64,000 nt of DNA, taken from NCBI RefSeq assembly GCF_944388875.1, contig NZ_CALXKQ010000003.1, forward strand, positions 124,001 to 188,000. The letters run 5' to 3'. Origin of the DNA: an uncultured Brachyspira sp. GTDB taxonomy: Bacteria > Spirochaetota > Brachyspiria > Brachyspirales > Brachyspiraceae. The position numbers and the translations under genes were made by a program. The notes beneath the pieces are model-generated. The model was not told the DNA's origin and searched no databases. It saw only the letters and a list, made by a program, of their open reading frames with translations. Positions 16,516 to 42,311 of the stretch are shown here, piece by piece; within the stretch, counting starts at the first letter, position 1; each line of letters begins with the position of its first letter.

Positions 16516-17859
16516 TCAATCTTTAATTAAAATATCAGCACTTCTATTTTTGTATAAGGCTATTGATACTATTAAAGTTATAATCTCGCTTATAGGTAGA
16601 ATTAATACTAATCCAATAAAGCCTAATATATTCGGAAGAGTTAATACCAAAGAAATAGGCAGAATCATACTTCTTAATGCCGAAACTAATGCTGAAGCTC
16701 CAGCCTTTTGAACCGATGTATAATAAGCACTCATTATTATATTGATGCCTACTCCTATAAATGTAGGTATTGAAGTGCGTACAAAAAATAAAGCATCCTC
16801 AAATGTTTGATTATCAACATCTTTTAAAAGCATATTTACAAGCAAGCTAGGATTAATTAAAACTATAACGGAAGCAAGAACCGATATGAAAGAAATTAAA
16901 AAGATAGATATTCTTAAAAAATATTTCATTCTATTTTTATTTTTAGCACCATAAGAAACACTAACCAAAGGCTCCAATGCCTCCCCTACAGAATATGCAA
17001 GCATTATAAAAAACATTACAGCATAATTGGCAACAGAATAAGCTAATATTCCCCTGTTTCCAGAAATTTTGTATGCTGTTATATTAAAAAGCCAAGGTAT
17101 AAGCCCAGAAGAAACGTTGCTCAAAAACTCAGAAAAGCCGTTAAATGCAGCCTTAATTATATATACCCATCCTCCATAAACTTTTATAAGCCTTAATCTG
17201 CAGTTAGGTTTTAAGAAATATAATAACCCCATTATAAATGCCGTTATCTGTGATATAGCAGTAGCCCAAGCAGCACCAGATATGCCTAAATGAAATACTA
17301 TAATAAAAAGAGGATCTAATATAATATTCACTATAGAAGATATTATAAACATGGATGAGGCAAATTTAGGAGATCCGTTAAGCCTTACAAATTGACTTAA
17401 TACATAAGCCATACCCCAAAAGAACGTAGCAAGCAAAACGCCTTCTACATAATCTAATGATAAATTATAAACTTCTCCATGTGCTCCGAAAATGGGAAGA
17501 AGAGTTTCTCTGAATATATATACTATTATGAGAGGAAAACTTGCTATTGTGAGAACTACAATTAAAGTCTGCGTGAATATTAAATTAGCTCTTCTTATAT
17601 TATTTTCACCTATACATTTTCCAGCAAGAGCAACGGAGCCTATTGTAAGCATTACATATATCCCAAATGATAATGCCGTTATAGGCCAAACTATATTAAT
17701 AGCAGTAAAAGCCTCTGGGGATATAAAATGTGCTACAAAAAAACCGTCTACAAATACCGCAGCACTTCCTGCTATCATGCCTAATATGCTTGGCACAGCA
17801 AATTTTGAAAATAAAGATATGCTGGTATTTTCTATTAAAGTTTTATTATTAAGCTCCAT
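16516..17859 (-). CDS. MATE-family multidrug efflux transporter
   Basis: 447-aa inner-membrane exporter with about 12 hydrophobic segments, using a Na+ or H+ gradient to expel organic cations or drugs. The N-terminal AVPSILGMIAGSAAVFVDGFFVAHF is the typical MATE start, and the second half repeats the pattern (YGAKNKNRMKYFLRIS). ATG 17859 was chosen because AAGGA lies eight bases upstream; an in-frame ATG at 17898 gives a charged extension not seen in the family. A promoter and a 22-codon ORF lie upstream on the same strand, suggesting leader control. The substrate is not predictable. Confidence 0.9.
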   Translation of the reverse strand: MELNNKTLIENTSISLFSKFAVPSILGMIAGSAAVFVDGFFVAHFISPEAFTAINIVWPITALSFGIYVMLTIGSVALAGKCIGENNIRRANLIFTQTLIVVLTIASFPLIIVYIFRETLLPIFGAHGEVYNLSLDYVEGVLLATFFWGMAYVLSQFVRLNGSPKFASSMFIISSIVNIILDPLFIIVFHLGISGAAWATAISQITAFIMGLLYFLKPNCRLRLIKVYGGWVYIIKAAFNGFSEFLSNVSSGLIPWLFNITAYKISGNRGILAYSVANYAVMFFIMLAYSVGEALEPLVSVSYGAKNKNRMKYFLRISIFLISFISVLASVIVLINPSLLVNMLLKDVDNQTFEDALFFVRTSIPTFIGVGINIIMSAYYTSVQKAGASALVSALRSMILPISLVLTLPNILGFIGLVLILPISEIITLIVSIALYKNRSADILIKD

Positions 17860-17916
17860 TTTTTTATTCCTTAAAGATGAAAGCAGAAAATCATACACAG
17901 AATAATAAATTAATTA

Positions 17917-17985
17917 TTAGTAATGCCTTAATGGAAATGAAGAAGATATAAAAATATCTATTAATAATTTTAAGCATAAAGACAT
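17917..17985 (-). CDS. 22-codon leader ORF upstream of the MATE gene
   Basis: ATG with a perfect AAGGAGG seven bases upstream encodes a 22-aa peptide beginning MSLCLKLLIDIF and ending PLRHY, stop at 17917. It lies between a strong promoter (18024-18052) and the MATE start 58 bases further on. It may be a leader peptide whose translation controls the exporter, as in drug-inducible resistance genes, or a small membrane peptide. No homologue is recognised. Confidence 0.55.
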   Translation of the reverse strand: MSLCLKLLIDIFISSSFPLRHY

Positions 17986-18023
17986 TTTAATACCTCCTTT
18001 TAATTTTATTGGATATAAAAATC

Positions 18024-18052
18024 AGTATAGTAATTTTATACATTTATGTCAA
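18024..18052 (-). promoter_or_regulatory. Promoter for the leader ORF and MATE gene
   Basis: On the minus strand: TTGACA, 17-base spacer, TATACT. The predicted start of transcription is about 30 bases before the leader ORF. A divergent gene begins at 18114 on the plus strand. Confidence 0.7.
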
Positions 18053-18113: not shown

Positions 18114-18461
18114 ATGAATTTCAAAAAAGTAAAAATAGAAATATATATACCAAAAGAATATACTCATAAGCTAAGAGAGGCATTAAATAATATAGGAGCA
18201 TTAGGAGTTGGAAATTATGATAATGTAATGACAGTTACAAAAATCACAGGATATTGGCGTCCACTTGAAGGAGCTAATCCTTTTGACGGAAAAATTAATG
18301 AGATATCTGAAGCAGATGAAGATATGGTGGGATTTTCAACTGATGCTAAAAATATACAAAACATTATAAAAGTTATAAAAGAAGTTCATCCCTATGAAGA
18401 GCCTGTTATAAATATTATACCTTTATTAAATGACAACTTTGATATTAATTTAGATTATTGA
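18114..18461 (+). CDS. Stand-alone YqfO/NIF3-insert-like (PII/CutA-fold) protein
   Basis: 115 aa matching the extra domain found inserted in some NIF3/YqfO proteins. Visible marks are GALGVGNYDNVM, YWRPLEGANPF and the C-terminal HPYEEPVINI. The small alpha-beta fold is of the PII/CutA type and forms trimers in relatives; the molecular role is unsettled. Its own start has GGAG upstream. It stands alone and overlaps by 12 bases the 3' end of the membrane-protein gene on the other strand. Confidence 0.72.
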   Translation: MNFKKVKIEIYIPKEYTHKLREALNNIGALGVGNYDNVMTVTKITGYWRPLEGANPFDGKINEISEADEDMVGFSTDAKNIQNIIKVIKEVHPYEEPVINIIPLLNDNFDINLDY

Positions 18462-19232
18462 AAATATATCTTTTATTATATAAATAAAATCATTCTTTGG
18501 AAACTTTTGAATATTGATAATATTTTCTGCAGCATCTGCAAAATATAATTTATTTTTACTAGGCAGATATGATACACTAAATATTTGAGCATTGCTGTTT
18601 AATAATTTTTCTTTTGTATATCCGTACTCAGACATTTCTATTATACGTTCTGGTATATTATCACCCATAAAAATAAATACGGCATGATTATATAATTTAG
18701 CCTTTAGTATTTTTTCTTTATCATTATCATCTTTTTTGAAAAGTTTTTGATTATCATCTATATACAAATCGAATATTTCATTTATCTCATTTTTGATAGT
18801 ATTTAAAATAGCCTCTCCGTCTTTATCAATATCTATTAAAAAGAAATAATAGGCATGTATTATTATAGATTTTTTATTTTTTATTACATCAGCATTAATA
18901 AAAACTCTTGATGAATTTACAGAATACATGCTATATCCGAAATATCTCAATCTGTCTATTATATGATCTTTAGAAACTGTTTTTTTTAAATCATGTTCAA
19001 ATATAGAATTATATTTTATGAAGTTTAATTTTCTTTTATTAATGCCTGAAACATCAATATACATAAAGACAAGAGTAATAATTTCTAGCACTATAAGAGA
19101 GATTGTAATATATATTTGATTTTTATTATAAATTGAAAAGAAAATTAAGTTGGCAAACGCTACGGCTATTAAACCATAAACGCTTGCCCTTAATAACTCT
19201 TTTTTGAAGGAGAACAGCTTATTATTGTTCAT
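18450..19232 (-). CDS. Membrane protein of unknown function downstream of fliE
   Basis: 260 aa. Two hydrophobic helices near the N-terminus (about 13-31 and 36-58) are followed by a soluble domain of about 200 residues with no recognised motif. It begins 21 bases after the fliE stop on the same strand, so it probably shares the flagellar rod transcript, although the ribosome site is weak. In other spirochaetes fliF/fliG often follow fliE; this protein resembles neither. A role in the flagellar membrane base is possible only by position. Confidence 0.6.
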   Translation of the reverse strand: MNNNKLFSFKKELLRASVYGLIAVAFANLIFFSIYNKNQIYITISLIVLEIITLVFMYIDVSGINKRKLNFIKYNSIFEHDLKKTVSKDHIIDRLRYFGYSMYSVNSSRVFINADVIKNKKSIIIHAYYFFLIDIDKDGEAILNTIKNEINEIFDLYIDDNQKLFKKDDNDKEKILKAKLYNHAVFIFMGDNIPERIIEMSEYGYTKEKLLNSNAQIFSVSYLPSKNKLYFADAAENIINIQKFPKNDFIYIIKDIFSII

Positions 19233-41357: not shown

Positions 41358-41375
41358 AATAAAAGGATAATTATT

Positions 41376-42311
41376 TTGAAAAAAGTATATATAGCTGGAC
41401 ATAAAGGTTTAGTAGGCAGTGCAATAGACAGAGTACTTACTAAAAACGTTTACACAAATATAATAAGAAAAACTCATTCAGAATTAGATTTAAGAAACAG
41501 AGAAGAAGTTTTCGATTTTTTTAAAAAAGAAAAACCAAATTGGGTATTTTTATCAGCGGCAAAGGTAGGAGGAATATATGCTAATAATACATATCCAGTT
41601 GATTTTCTTCTTTACAATCTGCAGATACAGAACAATATAATAGAAGCATCTTATGAAAACAATGTAGAAAAATTAATGTTTTTAGGTTCAAGCTGCATAT
41701 ATCCTAAAGAATGTCCTCAGCCTATTAAAGAAGAATATCTGCTTTCAGGATATTTGGAAAGTACAAACAGACCTTATGCATTGGCAAAGATTGCAGGTAT
41801 AGAATTATGTGATGCTTATAACAGACAGTATAATACAAATTATATAGCTGTTATGCCATGCAATCTATATGGAATAAATGATAATTATCACCCTGAAAAT
41901 GCTCATGTAATACCAATGCTTATAAGACGTTTTCATGAGGCAAAAATAAATAATTTAAAAGAAACTGTTATTTGGGGAAGCGGCACTCCATTAAGAGAAT
42001 TTATGTTTTCTGATGATTTAGCAGAAGCATGTCTTTATCTAATGGAAAATAAAAATGCTGAAGATATAGGAAGATTTATAAATATAGGTTCTGGAAAAGA
42101 AGTTACTATTAAAGAACTTGCAGATTTAATAAAAAAAGTTATAGGATTTGAAGGCAATATAAAATTAGATAGTTCTAAACCAGACGGCACTATGAGAAAG
42201 CTGCTTGATGTATCAAAAATAAATTCTTTGGGATGGAAATACAAAACAGAATTGGAAGACGGATTAAAAATAGCGTACAATGATTTTTTAAATAATTATA
42301 ATAATAAATAA
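41376..42311 (+). CDS. fcl: GDP-L-fucose synthase
   Basis: 311-aa bifunctional epimerase-reductase making GDP-L-fucose from GDP-4-keto-6-deoxymannose with NADPH. Nucleotide loop [11 protein letters not shown] at about 7-17, catalytic YALAK (Tyr and Lys) at about 136-140, SSCIYP (Ser) at about 107-112 and MPCNLYG. The start is TTG at 41376, with AAGGA eight bases before it. It forms an operon with gmd and a GT10 fucosyltransferase. Confidence 0.94.

What the first reader, a model, noticed from the sequence alone, without database searches (positions are those of the whole stretch)
17917..18052. Promoter and 22-codon ORF with a perfect ribosome site ahead of the MATE exporter
TTGACA-17-TATACT, then AAGGAGG and a 22-codon ORF, then 57 bases and the exporter's own ribosome site. 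Short leader peptides before efflux or methylase genes often sense ribosome-targeting drugs. The ORF ends in Arg-His-Tyr, and an efflux gene under leader control in Brachyspira would matter for drug response.
Basis: partly seen in the sequence, partly recalled or inferred. Interest (0 to 1): 0.6.

Follow-up and report, generated by a model that had tools for sequence, protein, structure and literature searches.

The report
Conserved leader peptide before MATE exporter
A tiny gene sits between a strong promoter and a drug-exporter gene in a Brachyspira spirochaete, and related tiny genes sit in the same place in sister species, so it is probably a real switch for the exporter, although what it senses is not known.

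Summary
On the minus strand there is TTGACA-17-TATACT, AAGGAGG, a 22-codon ORF (MSLCLKLLIDIFISSSFPLRHY), and 57 nt later the ATG of a MATE exporter. The 57 nt include the exporter's own ribosome site.

The ORF is no chance frame. Orthologous MATE genes in 4 of 19 Brachyspira loci carry the same peptide core (KLLIDIFISSxFxLxHY). A sister MATE clade carries a 23-27 codon ORF at the same place in 10 of 11 loci. Changes lean synonymous (pN/pS 0.27 and 0.41) and all length changes inside the ORFs are multiples of three. In all four A leaders the ORF's ribosome site is paired with its own DIFISS codons beyond chance. Eight A loci appear to have lost the ORF front but keep a remnant.

I read it as a cis-acting regulatory uORF. 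Antibiotic sensing is plausible but untested. Similarity to ErmCL is not significant, no intrinsic terminator was found, and predicted freeing of the exporter start by a stalled ribosome is small. A second layer is likely: a dyad that looks like a TetR-type operator follows the -10 in 26 of 31 loci, but not in this window.

Verdict: real conserved leader ORF; drug-sensing interpretation partly supported.

The parts
18024..18052 (-). sigma-70-type promoter TTGACA-17-TATACT
   Evidence: a matching promoter precedes 28 of 31 A, B and C MATE loci
17993..17999 (-). leader ribosome site AAGGAGG
17917..17985 (-). 22-codon leader ORF MSLCLKLLIDIFISSSFPLRHY*
   Evidence: conserved core in G002, G015, G020
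17941..17998 (-). hairpin: leader SD and AUG (17998-17980) paired with the DIFISS codons (17959-17941)
   Evidence: -14.8 kcal/mol against -5.6 for shuffles (z -4.2); same pairing in all 4 A leaders
17860..17916 (-). 57-nt spacer from leader stop to MATE ATG, including MATE ribosome site AAGGAA (17872-17867)
16516..17859 (-). MATE family exporter (447 aa from the ATG; the ORF lister starts it at GTG 17898)
   Evidence: PF01554 E 3.5e-32; orthologs start at this ATG
18114..18461 (+). divergent CutA1-like protein, 115 aa; neighbour, not part of the leader

Best explanation
The ORF is a real, translated regulatory uORF (leader peptide) in the 5' region of the MATE exporter mRNA. Its ribosome occupancy sets how much exporter is made. 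Shown by sequence: promoter, leader ORF and exporter lie in one line; the peptide core is conserved at the same place in related species; substitutions and length changes respect the frame; in the A clade the leader's SD and start codon are paired with its own DIFISS codons. Inferred: leader translation is normally limited by that hairpin. A ribosome that loads and slows or stalls on the C-terminal codons (F-x-L-x-H-Y) keeps them from pairing with the exporter's ribosome site and start, or shields the 5' region from decay or early termination, and so raises exporter output. The likeliest cause of slowing is a ribosome-targeting compound, which would make it a sensor for substrates or co-occurring drugs, but this step has no direct evidence.
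For: Peptide A was found by six-frame search in 4 genomes (E 2e-13, 5e-8, 7e-8 and 0.009 for our own), the next hit being E 0.16. Peptide B lies upstream of the sister MATE in 10 of 11 loci. pN/pS is 0.27 for A and 0.41 for B, against 1.59 and 0.59 in the other two frames of B. The column-shuffle test for synonymy plus openness gives 0.0012 (A), 0.0024 (B, 7 rows) and 0.008 (B, 10 rows). Length changes inside the ORFs are all multiples of three, while the B flanks carry gaps of other lengths. The A hairpin holds in 4 of 4: p 0.000-0.024 against dinucleotide shuffles and 0.004-0.036 against synonymous recodings. A matching promoter precedes 28 of 31 loci. Blocking the C-terminal leader codons makes the exporter start more open than the average recoding does in 11 of 11 loci tested, but weakly.
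Against: Synonymy alone is weak for B (column-shuffle p 0.076 and 0.083). Leader-to-exporter-start pairing does not beat recoded leaders (in 14 loci the best fraction is 0.033). The predicted rise in accessibility is only 0.00-0.15, and 1 to 21 of 60 recodings do as well. B leaders lack the hairpin and show no conserved structure (p 0.4). Three of the 10 B leaders lie 275-416 nt from the exporter because of an insert. A and B peptides are not provably homologous (p 0.076). 15 of 19 A loci lack the peptide, so it is dispensable. No expression data.
Confidence: 0.55

Rival explanations
1. Drug-sensing arrest peptide of the ErmC kind: a macrolide, lincosamide or pleuromutilin stalls the ribosome at a set codon of the leader, which frees the MATE ribosome site (translational attenuation).
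For: Architecture as in erm and bmr systems: promoter, short ORF with a strong ribosome site, resistance-type gene. Leader codons F-P-L can pair with the MATE start in the own sequence, and blocking them raises its openness slightly. The IFI-S stretch recalls IFVIS of ErmCL (ErmCL recalled, not from a call).
Against: Alignment to ErmCL is not significant for the 4 A leaders (p 0.16-0.69) and only for 2 of 10 B leaders (p 0.005, 0.023), about what 14 tests may give. No mutually exclusive hairpins beyond chance.
Confidence: 0.35
2. Transcription attenuation of the BmrB or MsrDL kind: leader translation decides whether RNA polymerase passes a terminator ahead of the exporter.
For: Same gene order; BmrB controls a multidrug ABC transporter this way (PMC4191407, passages).
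Against: No intrinsic-terminator-like site on this strand between the promoter and the exporter ATG; no conserved structure in B. Rho-dependent termination cannot be judged.
Confidence: 0.15
3. The exporter is controlled mainly by a DNA-binding repressor at the dyad after the -10; the small ORF is a passenger that happens to be translated.
For: AGT-N10-ACT lies 1-7 nt after the -10 in 26 of 31 loci, with or without a leader. The same dyad geometry lies upstream of a conserved TetR gene, divergent to an RND pump in our genome, in 13 of 26 genomes against 2.0 expected.
Against: The window itself has a promoter but no such dyad. A passenger would not keep its frame. The two layers do not exclude each other.
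Confidence: 0.2
4. The ORF encodes a small hydrophobic membrane peptide that works as a protein, for instance as a partner of the MATE pump.
For: Peptides are short, hydrophobic and basic (B: MLGYLKIFITSKLNILFFIYKSLTKVF type) and co-transcribed with a membrane protein.
Against: No continuous membrane-length hydrophobic stretch in the own peptide (Lys, Asp and Pro interrupt it; read by eye); lost in 15 of 19 A loci while the MATE stays. Not tested further.
Confidence: 0.1
5. Conservation is of an RNA hairpin, not of a peptide; the frame is incidental.
For: In A the DIFISS codons pair with the leader SD in 4 of 4, and the stretch TTAATAGATATTTTTATATC is identical, third positions included, in all four.
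Against: Silent changes fall outside that stretch and the C-terminal codons are not in the hairpin; B keeps its peptide without the hairpin.
Confidence: 0.12

Closest known systems
ErmC leader peptide (ErmCL) and translational attenuation of ermC
   Same: Short co-transcribed ORF with a strong ribosome site ahead of a resistance-type gene; leader codons can pair downstream.
   Different: Gene is a MATE exporter; leader SD is itself sequestered in A; no proven alternative hairpins; no significant peptide similarity; drug response unknown. Mechanism of ErmCL read in passages of PMC13148051.
BmrB leader peptide of bmrCD (Bacillus subtilis)
   Same: Leader ORF ahead of a multidrug transporter gene.
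   Different: BmrB has 53 codons and acts through an intrinsic terminator inside bmrB (PMC4191407, passages); no terminator-like site was found here.
MsrDL leader peptide of msrD
   Same: Very short hydrophobic leader ahead of an antibiotic-resistance gene.
   Different: MsrDL is MYLIFM with a Rho-independent terminator (PMC10314930, passages); neither is seen here.
toiL uORF of topAI (E. coli)
   Same: uORF whose stalled ribosome is proposed to open the ribosome site of the next gene.
   Different: toiL responds to at least five drug classes by experiment (PMC12121999, abstract); controls a toxin-antitoxin gene, not an exporter.

Membership tests
Conserved regulatory uORF / leader peptide | short ORF with ribosome site in the 5' region of the regulated gene | tested here: met
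Conserved regulatory uORF / leader peptide | peptide sequence under purifying selection at the same place in relatives | tested here: met
   modest statistics because the ORFs are short
Conserved regulatory uORF / leader peptide | translation of the ORF changes expression of the next gene | not testable with these tools
   needs reporter or profiling data
ErmC-type translational attenuator | mutually exclusive hairpins, one hiding the ribosome site of the resistance gene | tested here: inconclusive
   pairing present in some folds, not beyond recoded controls
ErmC-type translational attenuator | drug-dependent ribosome stalling in the leader | not testable with these tools
   needs toeprinting
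ErmC-type translational attenuator | arrest peptide of the ErmCL (IFVI) kind | tested here: not met
   no significant alignment for the 4 A leaders; ErmCL letters recalled
BmrB-type transcription attenuator | intrinsic terminator between leader start and transporter | tested here: not met
   none on the minus strand from 18024 to 17860
Known Rfam regulatory RNA (riboswitch and the like) | covariance-model match in the leader region | tested here: not met
   only a chance snoRNA match at 18492-18575
MATE exporter (PF01554) | family match above the gathering score | tested here: met
   111.8 bits against 24.9; below the cut-offs of all named NCBIfam equivalogs

The most novel reading that the evidence does not exclude
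A drug-responsive arrest peptide controls a MATE exporter in a spirochaete. It has a twist not named in the papers seen here: the leader's own start is hidden by the codons on which the ribosome would stall, so a stalled ribosome also keeps the leader open for the next one. The leader works beneath a TetR-type operator and has been lost by deletion in several lineages, which would leave those exporters free of this control.
Probability: 0.25. Interest if true: 0.7.

Novelty: new member of a known kind. Interest (0 to 1): 0.45.

Why it matters
If the leader responds to ribosome drugs, it would be an inducible resistance control in a genus that includes pig, poultry and human gut pathogens treated mainly with pleuromutilins, macrolides and lincosamides. 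My searches found no leader peptide paper for Brachyspira (6 papers, none on this by title and abstract) and no leader-controlled MATE gene (by listing), within an open-access library only. In B. hyodysenteriae the pleuromutilin gene tva(A) lies beside an operon of an oxidoreductase and a MATE pump (PMC6018095, passages). The clade A MATE of B. hampsonii is followed by an FAD-binding protein, so that pump may be the ortholog; I did not test this.

Tried and rejected
Second copy of the leader at G000:C11 (83% DNA match): rejected, it lies in the remains of an unrelated gene with no matching ORF.

Riboswitch or other Rfam family: none. Intrinsic terminator: none in the leader.

Leader-to-exporter-start duplex as a conserved switch: not beyond synonymous or dinucleotide controls. 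Conserved RNA fold in B: no. ErmCL homology: not significant. Homology of A and B peptides: suggestive only (p 0.076).

Other AGGAGG-ATG short ORFs in the window (5 further): three overlap long ORFs, one is inside the GDP-fucose synthase frame, one (39510) was not settled. Not further leaders as far as seen.

Rows dropped: the 3 B loci with inserts were left out because the exporter start lay beyond the stretch held. The B codon test used the 7 full-length leaders of 10, and the C-terminal block used all 10. The remnant alignment used 3 of 8 leaderless A loci of that type; the other five I read. The tree used 27 of 31 loci.

Peptide B search: one unrelated hit (G006:C4:1250061, E 0.009, with a stop) ranks above the true G006 leader (E 0.026).

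Full report
What is there. The feature lies on the minus strand. A promoter TTGACA-17-TATACT (18052-18024) is followed by AAGGAGG (17999-17993), the ORF MSLCLKLLIDIFISSSFPLRHY (17985-17917), 57 nt, and the ATG (17859) of a 447-aa MATE exporter. The exporter's own ribosome site AAGGAA (17872-17867) lies inside those 57 nt. The perfect ribosome site alone is not remarkable: 1 found against 0.38 expected, and 31 of 100 shuffles do as well. The promoter is better: 3 such sites in the window against 0.21 expected.

Relatives. A search of 26 Brachyspira genomes with the exporter gave two close clades: A (orthologs, 82-90% identical, 19 loci with our own) and B (sister clade, about 66-72%, 11 loci), plus one more distant gene in G019. 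Names come: the A sequence of G002 is that of B. alvinipulli ATCC 51933 (L039 equals L060), and G006 fits B. hampsonii 30446.

The leader is conserved. In clade A, 4 of 19 loci carry the peptide: own MSLCLKLLIDIFISSSFPLRHY; G002 MFICFYSILFKLLIDIFISSKFRLTHYFSFL; G020 the same with one change; G015 MFICLYIFKLLIDIFISSKFSLTHCFSFL. A six-frame search with the G015 peptide found these four and nothing else below E 0.16. In clade B, 10 of 11 loci carry a 23-27 codon ORF, for example MLGYIKIFITSKLNILFFIYKSLTKVF, in the same position; the eleventh (G024) has an insert and neither ORF nor promoter there. Together there are 14 leader ORFs in 11 of the 26 genomes.

It is coding. pN/pS is 0.27 in the A core (17 codons, 4 rows) and 0.41 in B (7 rows), 0.40 in the B C-terminal block (10 rows). 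Frames +1 and +2 of B give 1.59 and 0.59. With whole columns shuffled, A reaches its synonymy in 0.3% of shuffles, B in 7.6% and 8.3%. Synonymy and openness together are reached in 0.12%, 0.24% and 0.80%. The tests do not correct for relatedness. Length changes inside the ORFs are all multiples of three, while the B flanks show gaps of other lengths.

Structure. In all four A leaders, the leader SD and start codon pair with the codons for DIFISS (own: 17998-17980 with 17959-17941). Energies beat dinucleotide shuffles (p 0.000, 0.008, 0.024, 0.002) and synonymous recodings of the same peptide (p 0.018, 0.036, 0.004, 0.004). Covariation is slight: one of 20 pairs has a two-sided change. B leaders lack this hairpin and have no conserved fold. 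Direct pairing of the leader with the exporter start is not beyond controls. When leader codons past the IFISS or SK motif are held open, as by a stalled ribosome, the exporter start becomes slightly more open (rise 0.00 to 0.15). The rise is above the mean of 60 recodings in 11 of 11 loci tested, but 1 to 21 of 60 recodings do as well, and the loci are related. So the direction fits attenuation, but the strength does not prove it.

Loss of the leader. Eight leaderless A loci keep a sequence aligning to the 3' part of the A leader ORF, starting at ACTATTAATA, but lack its ribosome site and start (three of the eight aligned, the others read). In G002 the string ACTATTAATA occurs both just after the dyad and inside the ORF, so a deletion between direct repeats is a simple account; this is inference. 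The pilosicoli-like group (5 loci) and G018 have short 5' regions without any such ORF. G021 has a diverged candidate ORF and an exporter split over two frames. The tree groups the own, G002 and G020 genes (95/96) but leaves the deeper order of A open, so I do not claim whether the leader is ancestral to A and B. Peptides A and B share I-x-IFI-x-SK but score only p 0.076 against shuffles.

A second control layer. A matching promoter precedes 28 of 31 loci (all but G018 A, G024 B and G019), and AGT-N10-ACT follows the -10 by 1-7 nt in 26 of 31: AGTCYRA..ACT in most of A, and the reverse-complement arrangement (AGTA...TCGGACT) in B. Occurrence in both orientations argues for a DNA-binding protein rather than an RNA element. 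A conserved TetR-type gene (26 of 26 genomes), divergent to an RND pump in our genome, has the same dyad geometry within 400 nt upstream in 13 of 26 genomes, 2.0 expected by mononucleotide shuffle. Against this, a genome-wide pattern count was broadly no higher than its reversed control, and several other matches fell inside genes. The window's own promoter lacks the dyad.

What it most likely does. I judge it a genuine cis-acting leader uORF (about 0.85 that it is translated and selected, 0.55 for the regulatory model as stated, 0.35 for drug sensing of the ErmC kind). It works like known leader peptides of resistance genes, but membership in the ErmC or BmrB types is not established: the peptide-motif and terminator criteria were tested and not met, and stalling could not be tested.

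Literature. Searches. Read: passages of PMC4191407, PMC10314930, PMC13148051 and PMC6018095; outline and abstract of PMC12121999. None of what I saw describes a leader ORF ahead of a MATE gene in Brachyspira; subscription papers and preprints were not searched.

Noticed in passing
L133 (own genome G000:C16:41541) and promoters of MATE loci: Dyad AGT-N10-ACT after the -10 of 26 of 31 MATE promoters and upstream of a conserved TetR gene (divergent to an RND pump in our genome) in 13 of 26 genomes; likely one efflux regulon. The window's MATE promoter lacks it.
   Followed up: partly
L060, L050, L056, L058: A repeat-like insert (containing CCCGCCGCAAAAAG) separates leader and exporter in three B loci (spacing 275-416 nt); a similar stretch lies upstream of the exporter in G024, which has no leader.
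   Followed up: no
L039 2504-6343; G020:C145: Clade A and clade B MATE genes lie close together on the same strand in B. alvinipulli (G002) and G020; in L039 a gene resembling the variable surface protein lies between them.
   Followed up: no
L149, L151 (two other genera of the family): Their MATE relatives (about 53-54% identical) also have promoter-like sites and candidate short ORFs 150-190 nt upstream, with peptides unlike A or B.
   Followed up: no
G021:C168:1505-2868: Clade A MATE split over two overlapping frames (real frameshift or assembly error), with a diverged candidate leader.
   Followed up: no
L137 1573, L138 1544: The dyad also lies just upstream of more distant MATE genes in G018 and G003.
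   Followed up: partly
window 41361-42311 +: GDP-L-fucose synthase frame is open well upstream of its first ATG at 41676, so the gene probably starts at a non-ATG codon.
   Followed up: partly
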